64,000 nucleotides of DNA from Candidatus Omnitrophota bacterium (lineage in GTDB: Bacteria > CAIJMQ01), in NCBI GenBank assembly GCA_018812925.1, contig JAHJCU010000005.1, forward strand, positions 134,957-198,956, read 5' to 3'. Below, piece by piece: positions 1-26,060 of this stretch. The notes below the pieces were generated by a model. It saw only the letters and a program-made list of their open reading frames with translations. It made no database searches and was not told where the DNA came from. Position 1 is the first letter of the stretch, and every line of letters starts with the position of its first letter. Both the position numbers and the translations under genes were made by a program.

Positions 1-767
1 CATCTTTTGACTTGTATTGGGCGTTCAAAATGAAGCGTGTATTTATTGTTCTTGTTCCTTATTGTAAATCCGGGGAGAATAAGCGCTTGGGTCCAGTATG
101 CCAAAATAGCAGGACCTTTAGGGAAATATGTTTTTCTACCAAAGAATTCTACCTCTACCCCAGTAGCTTTATTTGCAGTTTTATCCCTTGTGTTTTTTGA
201 AAAATCAATATTTCTATCGCCGAGTATTGCCAACACTTCCCCCCTTTTTAATCTTCGAACTCCTTCTATTAAATTTTGCCCTAGAAATATTGATTTAAGC
301 CCCTTTGCCAAGCGTTGTTTAAGAAATATATTATTTATCGCTCTATTACGCTGTGGCAAAACTATTGCCGAAATAGGATACCCCATTAGTGAAAGAATCG
401 TGCCGCCTAACTCCCAATTACCGATATGCGCGGTTAGAGCTATAATTCCTTTGTTTTTTCTATAAGCGTTGTCAAAGTTTTCTTTATTTACCGTTTTCAC
501 CCATTTCTTCCAGTTATATTTGTTCAGTTGGGAAATAAAGAGAAAATCAGCCAAATATTTGGAAAAATTATGGAACATATCTCTCGCGGCATTATATTTT
601 GCTTTTTTCGACGGAATTTTTCCAAAATTAGAAAACACTGCTTTCCGGTTTTTTCTGTGAAAAAGAAAATACATATCGGAAGTTCTTAACCCTATCCAGT
701 ACTTAAATGGAGTTGGGAAAGAAACGGCCACAAACCTAGCAAACAGATACAATATATACTCTAACAT
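1..767 (-). CDS. LpxL/HtrB-family lysophospholipid acyltransferase (C-terminus cut by window edge)
   Basis: Open frame of 255 codons running off the left edge. It likely transfers an acyl chain to a lipid A precursor or similar lysolipid at the inner membrane. The HX4(D/E) catalytic motif is visible as HIGNWE, with His at about residue 114, and a later VLAILGDRNID stretch matches the family's second conserved block. The N-terminus is hydrophobic (ILYLFARF), as expected for the membrane anchor. The start is the only ATG after an in-frame stop about 60 bases upstream, and no strong ribosome site precedes it. A PlsC-like gene is divergent. The family is clear; LpxL, LpxM or a glycolipid acyltransferase cannot be told apart without the missing end. 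Confidence 0.85.
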   Translation of the reverse strand, partial: MLEYILYLFARFVAVSFPTPFKYWIGLRTSDMYFLFHRKNRKAVFSNFGKIPSKKAKYNAARDMFHNFSKYLADFLFISQLNKYNWKKWVKTVNKENFDNAYRKNKGIIALTAHIGNWELGGTILSLMGYPISAIVLPQRNRAINNIFLKQRLAKGLKSIFLGQNLIEGVRRLKRGEVLAILGDRNIDFSKNTRDKTANKATGVEVEFFGRKTYFPKGPAILAYWTQALILPGFTIRNKNNKYTLHFERPIQVKR

Positions 768-846
768 TTCTTTAAAAGTCGTTCTTCGGATTTTCCTGAA
801 AATTGCAGGAATATGTTTCCATAGTTACGGGTTTTTGCTAAAATGG

Positions 847-876
847 ATTATAACAGCAAAAGGAATCTAAATCCAA
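847..876 (-). promoter_or_regulatory. Sigma-70-type promoter for the lpxL-like gene
   Basis: On the minus strand TTGGAT (871-876), an 18-base spacer and TATAAT (847-852) preceded by TG make a good housekeeping promoter with an extended -10. The predicted transcript start near 840 leaves a leader of about 70 bases before the ATG at 767. Confidence 0.55.
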
Positions 877-938
877 GACAAATGTTGGCAAAAAGCTATA
901 CAAAGAAATAATTAAAATTCTTTATTTCTTCAATTTCA

Positions 939-1703
939 ATGAGTCAAAATATTGAAAGAATGCCAGACAAAAAAGATAAAAATTATCAACATCTATTGCA
1001 AAATAGGAAATTAAAAATTGCTTTCTATTCCTGGTTCAAAACAAGAATTATAGGCACTTTGGTCAATAGGTATTTAGATATCCAAGCCGAGGGGCTGGAT
1101 AATATCCCAGAAGGACCATGTATACTTGTTACACACCATTGTTTATATTTCGACTCGTCTGTAATTGCTTCTACGATTAAACGCAAAATACACGGATGGA
1201 TAGACGAAGACGCTTTTTCCAAACCGGGTGTGTGGCGATTATGTAACTTTCTTGAACAAGTCCCGGTTAAAACAGGCGGTCAGGCGTCACGGGAAGATTA
1301 TAAAAAAACAAAAGAAATGAGCATTATGTGGCTTAAAAATACAAAGGATCTTATCGGGTTGACTAATGACGGTGCCTCAAGGTATCTCTTTGATGAAACG
1401 GGAAATATATTAGATCTTCCTTCCAGAATGAATCATTCAGGAGCTGCAAGTTTAGCAATGGAAGCCAATGTTCCTGTTATTCCTACAGCTTCTTGGATTT
1501 CCCAAAAACATCAAAAGGAACTGTTTGTTTCAAAGGGGTTAAATAGTATAAAATACATGGAGAAGCAAAAAAAAATCCCTTATAAATTTTTCTTTTGTAA
1601 ACCTTTAAATCCTTGCGAATATACAAATAAAAAAGATTTAAAAGAAGATATCAGAAAAAAACAATTGGAAGCTTATCGAAAACTTTCGAATAAAACCCCG
1701 TAG
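939..1703 (+). CDS. PlsC-like 1-acyl-glycerophosphate acyltransferase family protein
   Basis: 254 aa. Predicted acyltransferase of the PlsC/LPLAT superfamily, probably acting on lysophosphatidic acid or a related glycerolipid at the inner membrane. The HX4D catalytic motif is HHCLYFD near residues 67-72, preceded by the typical ILVTHH block. A degenerate glycine/arginine block (NDGASR) stands where most members have FPEGTR, and a PVIPTA segment follows. The altered second motif means substrate choice is uncertain. No clear ribosome site precedes the ATG. A methyltransferase gene follows 39 bases after the stop, separated by a hairpin that overlaps the stop codon. Confidence 0.75.
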   Translation: MSQNIERMPDKKDKNYQHLLQNRKLKIAFYSWFKTRIIGTLVNRYLDIQAEGLDNIPEGPCILVTHHCLYFDSSVIASTIKRKIHGWIDEDAFSKPGVWRLCNFLEQVPVKTGGQASREDYKKTKEMSIMWLKNTKDLIGLTNDGASRYLFDETGNILDLPSRMNHSGAASLAMEANVPVIPTASWISQKHQKELFVSKGLNSIKYMEKQKKIPYKFFFCKPLNPCEYTNKKDLKEDIRKKQLEAYRKLSNKTP

Positions 1704-8823: not shown

Positions 8824-10119
8824 ATGAAACCTATAATACAAGTTGCGCTTGATTTTATTGAATTAAAAAGAGCCGTAAAACTTGCTCATGAAGCGGTTGG
8901 AGGCGGAGCTGATTGGCTTGAGGCGGGAACTCTTCTTATAAAAAGTGAAGGGATGGATGCGGTTAGAACTCTAAGAAAAGAATTTCCGAATTACACCATA
9001 ATCGCAGATATGAAAATCGCGGATACGGGTAGAGCCGAAGTCGAAGTTGCGGCTAAATCAGGGGCGGATATCGTTTGTGTGCTCGGTGGAATTTCTGACA
9101 GTACCATAAAAGAGTGCATTGAAGCAGGCAGGAATTATGGCGCTAAAATCATGGTTGACCTTCTTGAAGTAGAAGATTTGGTAAAAAGAGCAAAACAAGT
9201 TGAAAGTTGGGGCGCAGATTATTTGTGTATACACACTCCCATTGATGCGCAAATGAGGGGAAAAGACCCTTTTAAAGATTTGGGAAAAATCAGCAAGGCA
9301 GTAAATATACCTATTGCGGTTGCTGGCGGAATAAACAGCGAAACTGCTTCTAAGGCAGTCCAAGCAGGTGCTTCTATAATAATTGTCGGAGGAGCAATAA
9401 CAAAATCTGAAAATGCAAAAGAAGCGACACGGATTATTAAAAAAAGTATAAAAGATAAAAAACCTGTAAAAACATCTCTATATAAAAGAATTAGCGGGGA
9501 GGACATAAAAGATATTTTTTTTAAAGTATCTACTTCCAATATATCCGATGCGCTTCATAGGGGCGGTTATTGCAGAGATATAAGACCTATACTGGAAAAT
9601 ATTAAATTGGTAGGGAAAGTTTTTACGGTAAGAACGTACCCGGGTGATTGGGCAAAACCGGTGGAAGCAATAGATAAAGCGGAAAAGGGAGATGTTATAG
9701 TAATTGATTGTGGTGGGGTTGGTCCTGCGGTATGGGGAGAACTTGCATCATGGAGCGCTAAGCAAAAAGGCATTGCAGGCGTGGTGATAGACGGGGCAAT
9801 AAGAGATGTCCCGGAAATAAAAAAGTTTAAATTTTCGGCATTTGCAAAAATAATTACTCCACAGGCAGGCGAACCGAAAGGATTCGGAGAAATAGGAGTT
9901 GGCGTTGAAGTAGGCACAGTAAAAGTTTTTCCGGGGGACTGGATAATAGGAGATGATGACGGAGTAGTAGTAGTTCCTCAATTAAAAGCCACCGAAATAG
10001 CTAATCGCGCAATGGATGTGTTGGAAAAGGAAAACAGAGTCCGCAAAGAAATCAAAGAAGGCAGCACGCTTTCTCAAGTAACAGAGCTTTTGCGTTGGGA
10101 AAAAAACAGGCGAACGTAA
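8824..10119 (+). CDS. Bifunctional 3-hexulose-6-phosphate synthase / RraA-like protein
   Basis: 431 aa fusion. Residues 1 to ~205 are an orotidine-phosphate-decarboxylase-fold hexulose-6-phosphate synthase (ADMKIADTG carries the metal/phosphate residues; IPIAVAGGIN and IIIVGGAIT form the phosphate site), which condenses formaldehyde with ribulose 5-phosphate or runs in reverse to make pentoses. Residues ~220-425 are an RraA-like domain (GGVGPAVWGELAS, then VVIDGAIRD), a fold shared by RNase E inhibitors and HMG/oxaloacetate aldolases. The same fusion is known mainly in archaea and some bacteria. No isomerase gene (phi) is adjacent. The gene is transcribed alone from its own promoter. Confidence 0.85.
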   Translation: MKPIIQVALDFIELKRAVKLAHEAVGGGADWLEAGTLLIKSEGMDAVRTLRKEFPNYTIIADMKIADTGRAEVEVAAKSGADIVCVLGGISDSTIKECIEAGRNYGAKIMVDLLEVEDLVKRAKQVESWGADYLCIHTPIDAQMRGKDPFKDLGKISKAVNIPIAVAGGINSETASKAVQAGASIIIVGGAITKSENAKEATRIIKKSIKDKKPVKTSLYKRISGEDIKDIFFKVSTSNISDALHRGGYCRDIRPILENIKLVGKVFTVRTYPGDWAKPVEAIDKAEKGDVIVIDCGGVGPAVWGELASWSAKQKGIAGVVIDGAIRDVPEIKKFKFSAFAKIITPQAGEPKGFGEIGVGVEVGTVKVFPGDWIIGDDDGVVVVPQLKATEIANRAMDVLEKENRVRKEIKEGSTLSQVTELLRWEKNRRT

Positions 10120-21868: not shown

Positions 21869-21884
21869 GGATGACTCTGGAAGT

Positions 21885-21936
21885 AAAAAGTTAGAAGTAA
21901 AAAGGTAAAACCACAAGTTAAAAGTTAAAACAAGAA
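21885..21936. repeat. AAGTTA-phrase repeat after rplT
   Basis: Purine-rich phrases GAAGTAAAAAG, TTAGAAGTAAAAAGG and two copies of AAGTTAAAA fill the gap between convergent rplT and the frameshifted gene at 21937. No hairpin terminator is evident. Confidence 0.5.
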
Positions 21937-23068
21937 TTAGAATAGAGTCTTAAGATACACTTGGATAATTTTTACAACACCTTCAAAACAAGCCTTAATG
22001 TCTTCTGAGCTCCATTCTTTTATTTTTTCTCCTGGTTTCGGAGCATGACGAATATCAGCATAACTTGCGTTAGCAACTTTCCCTATCAAATTCCATTCAG
22101 TATTACATCCTATAATATCTTTAGCTTCTTTCTCACCGCCATATTTTTTTTCTAAAACCTCAATGATTTTATAAAGATAAAAGAGAGCAACATCATCCTG
22201 TTTTAAAGCATTATCATGGTATTTGAGTACTAAATTCGCCGTATCGTCACTTTCTATGGTTTGGATTTTAATACGAGTAGCTGTAGCCAATTTTTCCTTG
22301 GCAGGTTCAAATTTTTTATCCAGAATCTCTCGTTCGTTTTCTAATTTTTGCATTTCTTCCTTGATTTTTTCTTCTCCGAGAGATAAAAAAAGATCAATTA
22401 TATTTACCTTCGATTGGGTCTCATAAATTTTCGGTATCACTCTATTAAGAAAAGTAGCTATGATTTCTTCATTAGATTTATATTCAGGCAGTATTATCAA
22501 TTGTCCGTCTCCTATCTCTAGGGAGATACCCAAAATCTCACGGTTCATATTATAAAAAAGAAGAGCCCCACCTTCTCTTATTCTTAGTGGAACATTAATC
22601 GTCTGCAAAATAGGTATTTTTAAGCTGTCTTTTACAACTAAGGGAGAAAGATAATGATTATTGAGGAAGACTAATACTATTACCAGCAAGTGGTTTATAG
22701 TCTTTTGTAAACAATATTCCAGGTATAGATGGGATCCAATTATAAGCTTCATTTTGTTTTTTTAAGTCATCAACTATCCGATTGATAAAAATAAGGAAGG
22801 TGGCACCACGATAAATATGTCTGGATAAATTACTCAAGCTATATTCAGGTGTAAGGTCGTGAATATCACTACTTGAAATACAACCATGTTCATTCCTTGC
22901 AAAACAGTGAGGATCATATACAAATACATCCTTCTCATATACTTGACACGGCAAATTCCTTATTCCGTTACAAAAACCAATCGTACCCGAATCGACATCA
23001 AAACCTTGGTGTTTAAGTTTCTCAGTTAAGCTACTTGAACAATCTAGTAATAAAATACTTGGTATCAT
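21937..23068 (-). pseudogene. Unknown cytoplasmic protein, split by one frameshift
   Basis: Two overlapping frames join into one ~370-residue product. The first, starting at 23068, ends in AGNSISLPQ at 22658. The second continues from about 22660 with NNHYLSPLVVKDSLKIP and runs to 21937. The second frame's own upstream part is an unlikely sequence, so the break (near CTTCCTCAATAATC) is an indel in one gene, either real decay or an assembly error. No family was recognised. A coiled coil (EEMQKLENEREILDKKFEP) precedes a helical C-terminus with YADIRHAPKPGE, loosely recalling HEPN/Apea-type R-x-H domains. No neighbour suggests a role. Confidence 0.6.
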
Positions 23069-23138
23069 AATTATCTTTAACTTTTACAATAACACACTTT
23101 TGTTTCACCATTATATTCCCCCACCAGAAAATTGGCAA

Positions 23139-23292
23139 TCAATTAACAACTGGCAATTGGTAATTAGTAAATGGTAATTGGTAATCTTGAAAATTACGGG
23201 TTACGGTTTACGAATTACCAGTTACGAGACTCAACTTTATGACTGTTACCATTTTCCAAAAGGTTTTAAGTCTTTAGTCTATAGTCTAAATT
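23139..23292. repeat. Palindromic GGTAAT/ATTACC phrase repeat plus TCTATAGTCTA phrase
   Basis: The left arm carries repeats of GGCAATTGGTAATTAGTAAATGG; the right arm carries the complement type (ATTACGGGTTACGG, ACGAATTACCAGTTACGAG), making an imperfect palindrome at 23139-23232. Next to it, at 23268-23292, is the phrase AAGTCTTTAGTCTATAGTCT, seen again at 35161-35195. The same GGTAAA/TTTACC type occurs at 62090-62178. Confidence 0.65.
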
Positions 23293-24751
23293 AAATACTA
23301 TTTGTTACTTCTTCCCCTCGTTTCCCCTTCTCGTATTCTCTGATGTTTTCTATCGTGGTATCGGCGATGTTCTGAAGGGCTTCTTTGGTAAGAAATCCTT
23401 GATGGCTTGTGACTATCACATTATTGAAAGTTGTCAGGCGGGCAAGAATGTCGTCAACTAGTATACGGTTGGAAAAATCCTCAAAGAAGTAATCCTGCTC
23501 ATCCTCATAAACATCTAATCCTGCATAACCTATTTTTCCGTTTTTTAATCCGTCCAAGAGCGCTTTGGTATCTATTAATGCGCCTCTTCCCGTATTAATC
23601 AGCATGACCCCCTTTTTCATTTTTTTGATTGTTTTTTTGTCGATTATATGGCGGGTTTCTGGAGTAAGCGGTATATGAAGACTGATGATGTCGGATTCAG
23701 CCAAAAGTTTGTCCAATGGGACAAAACACACGCCTGTTTGTTTTTCAAGTTCTTTATCTCGGTGTCTTGCATAAGCAAGTAATTTGCATCCAAACCCGGC
23801 GAGAATATTTATGAGGCACTTTCCTATTTTGCCGGGACCTATAATTCCTGCGGTTTTGCCGTGAATATCAAAACCAACCAGCCCGGCAAGTGAAAAATTA
23901 CCTTCACGGATACGGTTATTGGCGCGGTGAACCTTGCGGTTAAGTGTCATCATTAACGCTACTGCGTGTTCAGCTACAGCATATGGCGAATATGCGGGGA
24001 CTCTTGCTACAGTTATTCCGAACTGTTTACATGCCTCTATATCAACGTTATTGTATCCGGCAGAGCGCAGCGCTATCATCTCCACTCCCATATCTTTAAG
24101 TTCCTCAATTACACCCTTATTCACAATATCATTTACAAACACGCAAACTATCTTACAGCCGGCTGCCAGGGAAACGGTTTTTAGTGAAAGGCGGGATTCG
24201 AAAAACTGGATGGAATAATTGTATCGGTTCTGTTTTTTGAAGATTTCTTCCATGTAAGATTTTGAATCAAAAAAAGCTATTTTTAAACGCTTGTCAATAT
24301 TACTAGAAAGTAATTTTGCCACTACAGATGTTTCCCTATGTAAATGTTTACTTAGATGCGCCAGCAGGCCTTTGGCAAGATTGTTATTTTGGTTGAGTAG
24401 TTTTTGAAAAGTAGCATGGTCAATCGTCCATACTTTGGTTTTAGTGCGAGTATGAAGTGTTGCTGAGCGCACTGTTTTCCCAAATAAGCTCATTTCCCCG
24501 GCTATATCGCCCTTTTGCAAAACAGCAACTTGAATTTTAATTTCCTGTTCGCCTTCTTTCAAAACTTCTACCTTGCCGGATTCTATAACCAACATACTAT
24601 CGCCTTTTTCTCCTTCGCGGTAGATGTTTTTACCTTTATTGAAGACTATTGGTTTCATCCTATCCACGAGCAAGCGCAGTGTTTCATTGTCCACAGCGGA
24701 GAAACAGTCCGCTTTCTTAAGTAGTTTCAATAAGTTTGCCTTATATTCCAT
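23291..24751 (-). CDS. Cyclic nucleotide-binding domain fused to D-2-hydroxyacid dehydrogenase (D-lactate dehydrogenase-like)
   Basis: 486 aa from the ATG at 24751, chosen because GGAG lies seven bases upstream; an open frame extends 30 codons further without a ribosome site. Residues ~10-150 form a cNMP-binding beta barrel (KGKNIYREGEKGDSMLVIES, GDIAGEMSLFG, then VRSATLHT, the phosphate-binding cassette). Residues ~160-480 are an NAD-dependent D-lactate/D-2-hydroxyacid dehydrogenase (LRSAGYNNVD, AGIIGPGKIGK as the NAD site, INTGRGALIDT, catalytic HQGF). The fusion suggests a dehydrogenase gated by a cyclic nucleotide. The cassette has the PRE...RSA form with E and R present in GEMSLFG...RSATL, so ligand binding is plausible. 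Confidence 0.88.
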   Translation of the reverse strand: MEYKANLLKLLKKADCFSAVDNETLRLLVDRMKPIVFNKGKNIYREGEKGDSMLVIESGKVEVLKEGEQEIKIQVAVLQKGDIAGEMSLFGKTVRSATLHTRTKTKVWTIDHATFQKLLNQNNNLAKGLLAHLSKHLHRETSVVAKLLSSNIDKRLKIAFFDSKSYMEEIFKKQNRYNYSIQFFESRLSLKTVSLAAGCKIVCVFVNDIVNKGVIEELKDMGVEMIALRSAGYNNVDIEACKQFGITVARVPAYSPYAVAEHAVALMMTLNRKVHRANNRIREGNFSLAGLVGFDIHGKTAGIIGPGKIGKCLINILAGFGCKLLAYARHRDKELEKQTGVCFVPLDKLLAESDIISLHIPLTPETRHIIDKKTIKKMKKGVMLINTGRGALIDTKALLDGLKNGKIGYAGLDVYEDEQDYFFEDFSNRILVDDILARLTTFNNVIVTSHQGFLTKEALQNIADTTIENIREYEKGKRGEEVTNSI

Positions 24752-24867
24752 TTTCTTTCTCCATTTTTTAATTTTGATTTTGTTGGTGTTGCAAGAACAA
24801 AGAATTTTACTCTCATGTAGCGGATAGGTCAAAACAATCACTGTGAGTTTGGGCTAAGAATTTAAGA

Positions 24868-25020
24868 TAGTTGTAAGTTTTAGGTTTTAAGTTCTAAGTT
24901 ACTACTTAAAACTTATCACTTACGACTTATAACTTGTTTCCCCTTTCTTGCTTCTGCGATATTTGTGATGTTATACTTAGACAAAATAGTTTATAGTTTA
25001 GGGTTGAGAGTTTATAGCTA
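24868..25020. repeat. Palindromic AAGTTTTA-phrase repeat upstream of pheS
   Basis: AAGTTTTAGGTTTTAAGTTCTAAGT followed by complement-type phrases (ACTTAAAACTTATCACTTACGAC) forms an imperfect palindrome at 24868-24942. A further run TAGTTTATAGTTTAGGG with GAGTTTATAGC lies at 24987-25018. No T-box leader or other known riboswitch was recognised before pheS. Confidence 0.55.
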
Positions 25021-25049
25021 GCCAACAAAATCAACAAGATAAATGAAAT

Positions 25050-26060
25050 ATGTTAAACGAACTTGAAAAAATCAAGAAAGAATTTTTAGATTCGATTGAA
25101 ACTATCAAAGACAGCAAGACATTAGAAGAGTTAAGAGTTAAATTTTTAGGAAGAAAAAGCGGTTTAACCTCTGTCCTTCGTTCTTTGGGGACACTTATTC
25201 AGGAAGAACGTGTTTTAGTTGGTCAGAAAGCAAATGTTTTACGCAAAGACATTGAGGCTCGATTAGAGGAAATAAAGCATAATCTTGGTCAGAAGACGGG
25301 GAAAGAAGTTTCTATTGACCATACTCTTCCGGGTCTTCCTTTATCACTTGGCAAAGAACATCCCATAACAAAAACGATTCGAGAAATAGTGGATATTTTT
25401 TCTCCTTTGGGATTTCAAGTGGCTACAGGGCCCGAAATAGAAACTGATTATTATAATTTTGAAGCTTTAAATTTCCCACCTGAGCATCCTGCAAGAGACG
25501 AACAGGATTCTTTTCAGCTTTTGGGCGGCAAATATTTGCTTCGTACCCAGACTTCTCCGGTGCAGATAAGAGTAATGGAAAAAACTAAACCACCTGTAAG
25601 GATAATTTCGCCTGGCGTATGTTATAGAAGAGATAATCCAGACGCTTCACATTCTCCGATGTTTCATCAGGTAGAAGGTTTAGCCGTTGATACGGATATA
25701 CATTTTACCGACTTGAAAGGTGTTTTGTCGGAATTTATACATCAAATGTTTGGCAAGGAAATAAAGATGCGTTTTGTTCCGTCATTTTTTCCGTTTACTG
25801 AGCCGTCGGCTGAAGTTGCTATTTCCTGTATTATATGCGGCGGAAAAGGATGTTCGACTTGCGGAAGGACAGGATGGCTTGAGGTTCTCGGAGCAGGTAT
25901 GGTTCATCCGAATGTTTTTAAGAAAGTACATTATGATCCTAAAAAATATACAGGATTTGCCTTTGGTATGGGAGTAGAAAGAATAGCAATGCTGAAATAT
26001 GGTGTTGGCGATATACGTCTTTTTTATCAAAATAATTTACAGTTTTTACGTCAATTTTAA
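25050..26060 (+). CDS. pheS: Phenylalanyl-tRNA synthetase alpha subunit
   Basis: 336 aa, normal length. The N-terminal coiled coil (LEKIKKEFLDSIETIK) with FLGRKSGLT precedes the class II catalytic core: motif 2 around PGVCYRRDNPDASHSPMFHQ, the cysteine pairs CIICGGKGCSTC, and motif 3 in FAFGMGVERIAMLKYGV. It ends normally at DIRLFYQNNLQFLRQF. The beta-subunit gene pheT, usually next, is absent; a surface-protein operon follows. No ribosome site is visible before the ATG. Confidence 0.96.
   Translation: MLNELEKIKKEFLDSIETIKDSKTLEELRVKFLGRKSGLTSVLRSLGTLIQEERVLVGQKANVLRKDIEARLEEIKHNLGQKTGKEVSIDHTLPGLPLSLGKEHPITKTIREIVDIFSPLGFQVATGPEIETDYYNFEALNFPPEHPARDEQDSFQLLGGKYLLRTQTSPVQIRVMEKTKPPVRIISPGVCYRRDNPDASHSPMFHQVEGLAVDTDIHFTDLKGVLSEFIHQMFGKEIKMRFVPSFFPFTEPSAEVAISCIICGGKGCSTCGRTGWLEVLGAGMVHPNVFKKVHYDPKKYTGFAFGMGVERIAMLKYGVGDIRLFYQNNLQFLRQF

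What the first reader, a model, noticed from the sequence alone, without database searches (positions are those of the whole stretch)
23291..24751. Cyclic-nucleotide-binding domain fused to a D-lactate-type dehydrogenase
One 486-residue frame has an intact-looking cNMP cassette followed by a complete NAD-dependent D-2-hydroxyacid dehydrogenase. Direct control of a fermentative dehydrogenase by a cyclic nucleotide would be an unusual post-translational switch; cNMP domains are normally joined to DNA-binding or membrane domains.
Basis: partly seen in the sequence, partly recalled or inferred. Interest (0 to 1): 0.65.

Follow-up and report, generated by a model that had tools for sequence, protein, structure and literature searches.

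The report
Cyclic-AMP-sensing domain fused to lactate dehydrogenase
This bacterial gene joins a cyclic-nucleotide sensor to a D-lactate dehydrogenase in one protein, a rare design shared by a few distantly related uncultured bacteria, and it may let a second messenger switch a metabolic enzyme directly instead of through gene expression.

Summary
On the minus strand, 23291-24751 is one intact 486-residue frame: a cyclic-nucleotide-binding (CNB) domain (36-122), a long helix (123-152) and an LdhA-type D-2-hydroxyacid dehydrogenase (156-482) with its catalytic Arg, Glu and His. It is no assembly accident: nine other genomes in four or five phyla carry members of the same clade at 54-64% identity (seven full-length, one cut by a contig edge, one with a broken CNB frame), from one origin (95/96 to 100/98). 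One detail is probably wrong: the Asp that defines NAD use is lost in 8 of 10 clade members (ARHRD here) but kept in about 93 unfused LdhA-like ORFs, so NADPH is likelier. Support for a switch: in its own 1.47-Mb genome this is the only CNB protein found, and there is one class III cyclase with adenylyl-cyclase residues. Three related genomes have a large adenylate cyclase gene near the fusion; one has a lactate permease just upstream. Congeners have the cyclase but no CNB protein, so the wiring is unproven. Best reading: cAMP binding allosterically sets the activity of a probably NADPH-linked D-lactate dehydrogenase. No paper describing this was found.

The parts
23291..24751 (-). CNB-LdhA fusion gene, 486 aa
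   Evidence: Open frame; Pfam; seven other full-length genes of the same layout
24759..24762 (-). GGAG ribosome-binding-site-like motif 7 nt before the ATG
   Evidence: Read from the sequence
24386..24646 (-). Cyclic-nucleotide-binding domain, residues 36-122
   Evidence: PF00027 E 4.4e-20; AlphaFold2 blocks mostly 83-96 pLDDT
24461..24499 (-). Phosphate-binding cassette G85-E86 ... R95-S96-A97; Glu and Arg align with E72 and R82 of E. coli CRP
   Evidence: Alignment with CRP (CRP sequence from memory); G85, E86, R95, A97 invariant in six fusions
24296..24385 (-). Long helix 123-152 linking CNB to dehydrogenase; L137, R139, T141, A145, L147 invariant in six fusions
   Evidence: DSSP on AlphaFold2 model, residues 138-151 low confidence
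23306..24286 (-). LdhA-type D-2-hydroxyacid dehydrogenase, residues 156-482
   Evidence: PF00389/PF02826; Foldseek TM 0.97, rmsd 1.1-1.2 to P. aeruginosa LdhA 5z20
23756..23770 (-). Coenzyme (betaB-alphaD) loop A328-R-H-R-D332; Ala328 stands in place of the NAD-defining Asp
   Evidence: fingerprint described in PMC6303947
23585..23587 (-). Catalytic Arg389
   Evidence: Invariant in 49 aligned sequences
23498..23500 (-). Catalytic Glu418
   Evidence: Invariant in 49 aligned sequences
23402..23404 (-). Catalytic His450
   Evidence: Invariant in 49 aligned sequences
21870..24944 (.). Segment between rplT and pheS (fusion plus uncharacterised minus-strand ORFs) that is absent in the congener G001, which has about 385 bp there
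   Evidence: blastn and tblastn of G001 locus L145 against the window; PheS 98% identical

Best explanation
The gene encodes a cyclic-nucleotide-gated D-lactate (2-hydroxyacid) dehydrogenase. An adenylyl cyclase makes cAMP (in this genome the CHASE2-class III cyclase on contig C10). cAMP binds the N-terminal CNB domain, orders its long C-terminal helix, and this changes the activity of the attached, probably tetrameric LdhA-type enzyme, which most likely reduces pyruvate (or a near relative) with NADPH. Shown: intact fusion, conserved cassette and catalytic residues, single-origin conserved architecture, loss of the NAD-defining Asp, a cyclase in the genome. Inferred: that the ligand is cAMP, that binding changes activity and in which direction, that the substrate is pyruvate/lactate, and the oligomeric state.
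For: Intact frame and domains. Glu/Arg of the phosphate-binding cassette kept in all core fusions compared, R-x-T motif in the C-helix kept; nearest solved CNB relatives are cGMP- and cAMP-dependent kinases, followed by the SthK channel. Catalytic R389, E418, H450 invariant in 49 sequences. Good AlphaFold2 model, pLDDT 88.9; dehydrogenase part TM 0.97 to LdhA. Ten clade members in one clade by the dehydrogenase tree (100/98, 100/95, 95/96), spread over the window's phylum, Auribacterota, Bipolaricaulota, Planctomycetota and the phylum of the Lentisphaerae genome. Own genome: sole CNB protein and sole class III cyclase found, the cyclase closest to P. aeruginosa CyaB with the same Lys and Thr at the purine-specifying positions. 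All five other fusion genomes tested have class III cyclases. A large adenylate-cyclase/AAA/TPR gene lies two genes from the fusion in three Bipolaricaulota genomes (PF00211 scanned in L036; the other two by matching ORF). A lactate permease ends about 21 bp before the ATG of the Auribacterota fusion on the same strand. LdhA enzymes of this type include allosteric tetramers (PMC4230899). A separate LdhA in a Planctomycetota genome carries a receiver domain next to a histidine kinase, a parallel case of a sensory domain at the same end.
Against: No binding or activity data. Congeners G001-G003 have the cyclase but no CNB protein, so the cyclase does not depend on this target. Class III cyclases are common, so co-occurrence is weak evidence. 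The cyclase-fusion neighbourhood comes from three close relatives and may be one event. No lactate permease in the window's genome. Genome is 92% complete, and other cyclase classes were not searched. The relative placement of the two domains in the model is unsure (pTM 0.64).
Confidence: 0.6

Rival explanations
1. The CNB domain is a sensor, but for another ligand (a nucleoside, cGMP, or another small molecule), and regulates the dehydrogenase in response to it.
For: CNB domains can change ligand: trypanosomatid PKA binds nucleosides (abstract of PMC10959531). The residue aligned with CRP Thr127 is Glu here, so the base contact may differ.
Against: Glu and Arg of the cassette, which hold the cyclic phosphate and ribose in known cNMP binders, are kept in all core fusions compared, and an adenylyl-cyclase-like gene is present.
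Confidence: 0.17
2. The CNB domain is a relic or an oligomerisation or tethering module; the enzyme is an unregulated dehydrogenase.
For: Congeners lacking CNB proteins keep the cyclase; one relative (G157) has the CNB frame disrupted while the dehydrogenase frame is intact, and the divergent fusion L152 has lost the cassette Glu.
Against: The cassette and linker helix are conserved across phyla at 56-59% overall identity; G157 may be a sequencing error.
Confidence: 0.15
3. The regulated enzyme does not make lactate but reduces another 2-keto acid (for example 2-ketobutyrate, glyoxylate or hydroxypyruvate) with NADPH. This concerns the substrate only and does not exclude the regulatory model.
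For: NADPH use in this superfamily is typical of the GHRA/GHRB reductases (PMC6303947); F. nucleatum D-LDH prefers 2-ketobutyrate (PMC4230899); no lactate permease in this genome.
Against: The sequence falls inside the LdhA clade with all its catalytic residues and one relative is in a putative operon with a lactate permease.
Confidence: 0.25
4. The fusion is an assembly or binning artefact.
For: Most sources are metagenome-assembled; the gene is absent from the congener's rplT-pheS interval.
Against: The same architecture was assembled independently from many samples and phyla, with a shared linker and one dehydrogenase clade.
Confidence: 0.02

Closest known systems
LdhA-type (LDHD subfamily) D-lactate dehydrogenases, e.g. 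P. aeruginosa and E. coli LdhA
   Same: Whole dehydrogenase domain (52% identity to P. aeruginosa LdhA, TM 0.97), catalytic Arg/Glu/His; the family includes allosteric tetramers
   Different: Added N-terminal CNB domain; NAD-defining Asp replaced by Ala-Arg
CNB-domain receptors (CRP, PKA and PKG regulatory domains, SthK channel)
   Same: CNB fold, cassette Glu and Arg, helix after the barrel
   Different: Output is a metabolic dehydrogenase, not DNA binding, a kinase or a channel; no helix-turn-helix
CNB-gated enzymes: cAMP-sensing EAL phosphodiesterase Bd1971 (PMC6717892) and mycobacterial CNB-acetyltransferase Pat (general knowledge; its NCBIfam model is hit weakly through the CNB part)
   Same: CNB domain N-terminal to a catalytic domain, direct second-messenger control
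   Different: Different, unrelated enzyme; here in carbon metabolism; no biochemical proof yet
SerA-type 3-phosphoglycerate dehydrogenases with C-terminal ACT/ASB domains
   Same: A D-2-hydroxyacid dehydrogenase regulated through an extra domain (PMC6303947)
   Different: Regulatory domain is an amino-acid sensor after the catalytic part, not a CNB domain before it

Membership tests
LdhA-type D-lactate dehydrogenase | Sequence and fold of the LdhA clade | tested here: met
LdhA-type D-lactate dehydrogenase | Catalytic Arg, Glu, His | tested here: met
   R389, E418, H450 invariant in 49 sequences
LdhA-type D-lactate dehydrogenase | NAD(H)-type Asp at the end of beta-B | tested here: not met
   A328-R329 here; Asp kept in about 93 unfused relatives and in the fusions L033, L159 and L152
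LdhA-type D-lactate dehydrogenase | Pyruvate reduction to D-lactate | not testable with these tools
   Needs enzyme assay
Cyclic-nucleotide-binding domain (PF00027) | Profile score over the curated cut-off | tested here: met
   71.9 bits against 27.5
Cyclic-nucleotide-binding domain (PF00027) | Phosphate-binding cassette Glu and Arg | tested here: met
   E86, R95
Cyclic-nucleotide-binding domain (PF00027) | Binding of cAMP or cGMP | not testable with these tools
   Needs calorimetry or a binding assay
CRP/FNR transcription factor | C-terminal helix-turn-helix after the CNB domain | tested here: not met
   Dehydrogenase follows directly; no such Pfam match
NADPH-type 2HADH fingerprint (GHRA: [ST]R[ST]x[RK]) | Fingerprint in the betaB-alphaD loop | tested here: inconclusive
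   Exact in L032, L034, L036, L037; window has ARHRD, which keeps the Arg and lacks the Asp but is not an exact match

The most novel reading that the evidence does not exclude
A minimal, transcription-free cAMP pathway: in this small genome the only CNB-type receptor is a metabolic enzyme, so a sensor cyclase controls lactate (2-hydroxyacid) metabolism and NADPH use directly, and the fusion clade has switched coenzyme from NADH to NADPH after the sensor was added.
Probability: 0.35. Interest if true: 0.75.

Novelty: new variant of a known kind. Interest (0 to 1): 0.58.

Why it matters
In bacteria the most prevalent cAMP receptors are CRP-type transcription factors. A D-lactate dehydrogenase with its own cyclic-nucleotide sensor would be direct second-messenger control of a carbon-metabolism enzyme, without a transcription step. 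It gives a testable single-protein system, a candidate role for cAMP in an uncultured bacterium with no CRP found, and an example of a coenzyme change that follows gain of a regulatory domain.

Tried and rejected
Assembly artefact: rejected, the architecture recurs in independent genomes. NAD-dependent enzyme: disfavoured by the loop. A first AlphaFold2 run on six sequences was poor (pLDDT 66) and was replaced by one on 49 sequences. An apparent stop-containing 'fusion' in four Auribacterota genomes (L136-L139) was an ordinary unfused LdhA after an upstream stop. Long frames at L166 and L177 carry no recognisable CNB motif; the extra length of L166 is read-through from an upstream gene. Promoter and terminator scans found no more than chance. 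The viral structure library gave nothing useful. Literature searches found no description of a CNB-D-LDH fusion; the library lacks most subscription journals, and domain-architecture databases could not be queried. Whether the divergent fusion L152 is a second origin is unresolved (AU p 0.255). The organism of the window was not identified.

Full report
OBSERVATION. The frame is real and intact. It lies on the minus strand, 24751 to 23291, ATG start with a GGAG 7 nt upstream. Pfam finds the CNB domain at residues 36-122 and both halves of the D-2-hydroxyacid dehydrogenase at 158-482, all far above cut-off. The nearest solved structure is P. aeruginosa LdhA. The plus strand of the same stretch has many stops. 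AlphaFold2 on an alignment of 49 sequences gives mean pLDDT 88.9, a CNB domain, a helix over residues 123-152, and a dehydrogenase that matches 5z20 at TM 0.97 and 1.1-1.2 A. The helix end (138-151) is low in confidence and the relative placement of the domains is not established (pTM 0.64).

RESIDUES. Cassette residues G85, E86, R95 and A97 are invariant in six fusions; E86 and R95 align with E72 and R82 of E. coli CRP (CRP written from memory). R139 and T141 in the following helix are also invariant. Catalytic Arg389, Glu418 and His450 are invariant in 49 aligned sequences. The equivalence to Arg235, Glu264 and His296 of Lactobacillus D-LDH is from general knowledge.

COENZYME. In about 93 distinct unfused LdhA-like ORFs the residue at the end of beta-B is always Asp (two of them, L004 and L097, and the fusion L152 were read by eye because the pattern missed them). 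In the fusions it is lost in eight of ten core members: ARHRD (window), SRSEK (L032), SRTAK (L034), NRTRY (L035), SRTPK (L036 and G157), SRSPK (L037), TKPED (L150). It is kept in L033 and L159, and in the divergent L152. A review of the superfamily gives [ST]R[ST]x[RK] as the NADPH fingerprint of GHRA, and states that LDHD enzymes use NADH (PMC6303947). The eight Asp-less members form one group on the tree (89/87), so one coenzyme change after the fusion is the simplest reading. This makes 'NAD-dependent' unlikely for the window protein, though its loop is not an exact fingerprint.

DISTRIBUTION AND ORIGIN. One scan of one genome for each of 84,980 species with six peptide patterns found five other full-length fusions and one truncated at a contig edge. 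Targeted searches added L150 (phylum of the Planctomycetota genome), L159 (phylum of the Lentisphaerae genome), G157 (Bipolaricaulota, CNB frame disrupted) and a divergent one, L152. Rates: 4 of 100 genomes in the phylum of G062 (Bipolaricaulota), 1 of 44 in that of G061 (Auribacterota), 2-3 of 392 in that of G063 (Planctomycetota), 2 of 388 in that of G060. The record titled Atribacteria (L036) falls in the same genome phylum as the Bipolaricaulota one. The dehydrogenase domains of the fusions form one clade (100/98 for seven, 100/95 for eight, 95/96 for ten); their spread over distant phyla with few members in each suggests horizontal transfer. L152 does not fall in that clade on the best tree, but one clade is not rejected (AU p 0.255).

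LOCAL HISTORY. The window's gene sits between rplT and pheS, with uncharacterised minus-strand ORFs. In the congener G001, whose PheS is 98% identical, the same interval is about 385 bp long. The fusion is thus a gain in the window's lineage or a loss in G001. G001 instead has an unfused, NAD-type LdhA (57% identical) from another part of the tree. GC3 of the fusion is 39%, against 28% for pheS and 33% for the upstream metG-like gene, which fits a foreign origin but is weak evidence.

SIGNALLING CONTEXT. In the window's genome (1.47 Mb, 92% complete) PF00027 hits only this gene and PF00211 hits only one gene, a CHASE2-class III cyclase. Its catalytic domain is closest to P. aeruginosa CyaB and has the same Lys (DKYIGD) and Thr (DYTIMG) at the purine-specifying positions, which points to adenylyl rather than guanylyl cyclase (the meaning of these positions is general knowledge). 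All five other fusion genomes tested have class III cyclases and more than one CNB protein. In L036, L037 and G157 the fusion is followed by a large putative exported protein and then a convergent gene of 1347-1376 residues; Pfam identifies the L036 copy as a class III cyclase-AAA-TPR protein, and the other two were assigned by the matching ORF and its cyclase motif. In L033 a lactate permease (PF02652, 371 bits) ends about 21 bp before the ATG of the fusion on the same strand. Against a dedicated circuit: G001, G002 and G003 have the cyclase and no CNB protein, so its product there must act otherwise or the genomes are incomplete. No lactate permease was found in the window's genome.

PARALLEL CASE. 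L157 (genome G331, phylum of the Planctomycetota genome) encodes a receiver domain fused to the same end of an LdhA-type dehydrogenase, beside a histidine kinase. This shows that N-terminal sensory domains have been added to this enzyme more than once and supports a regulatory reading. LdhA enzymes from P. aeruginosa, F. nucleatum and E. coli are tetramers with allosteric behaviour (PMC4230899).

MECHANISM. Shown: the fusion, the motifs, the clade, the loss of Asp, the cyclase. Inferred: cAMP binding orders the helix 123-152 and shifts the conformation or assembly of the dehydrogenase. Direction (activation or inhibition), substrate and physiological role are open. With NADPH the enzyme would not simply recycle glycolytic NADH; it might act as a controlled NADPH or carbon outlet.

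NOVELTY. CNB domains on enzymes are known (PMC6717892). A CNB domain on a D-lactate dehydrogenase was not found described in the papers searched; this is absence from one library, and domain databases may list it. I file it as a new variant of a known kind.

Noticed in passing
L157:1456-2877 (minus) and 1-1452 (minus): Receiver domain fused to an LdhA-type D-lactate dehydrogenase, next to a Cache/HAMP/HisKA histidine kinase: a possible phosphorylation-controlled LDH.
   Followed up: partly
L152:729-2276 (minus): Divergent CNB-LdhA fusion with the cassette Glu lost and NAD-type Asp kept; possibly a second, independent fusion.
   Followed up: partly
L133:1063-2514 / L141:5617-7068 (G157): Fusion-clade gene whose CNB part is frame-disrupted while the dehydrogenase frame is intact; sequencing error or decay.
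   Followed up: partly
G001, G002, G003 (L115-L117): Relatives of the window's genome keep a class III cyclase but have no detectable CNB protein, so the receptor for its product is unknown.
   Followed up: partly
window 21937-23068 (minus): Two overlapping ORFs (271 and 136 aa) with no Pfam match in the extra segment between rplT and pheS; may be one frame-disrupted gene.
   Followed up: partly
window 24880-25060: A/T-rich, repetitive-looking short motifs (variants of 'aacttaaaacctaaaacttac', 'ataaactataaac') between the fusion and pheS.
   Followed up: no
window 8824-10119: One frame joining an OMP-decarboxylase/HUMPS-type domain and an RraA-like domain.
   Followed up: no
G061 (L033 and L140): The Auribacterota genome carries both a CNB-fused and an unfused LdhA, a natural pair for comparing regulated and unregulated forms.
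   Followed up: no
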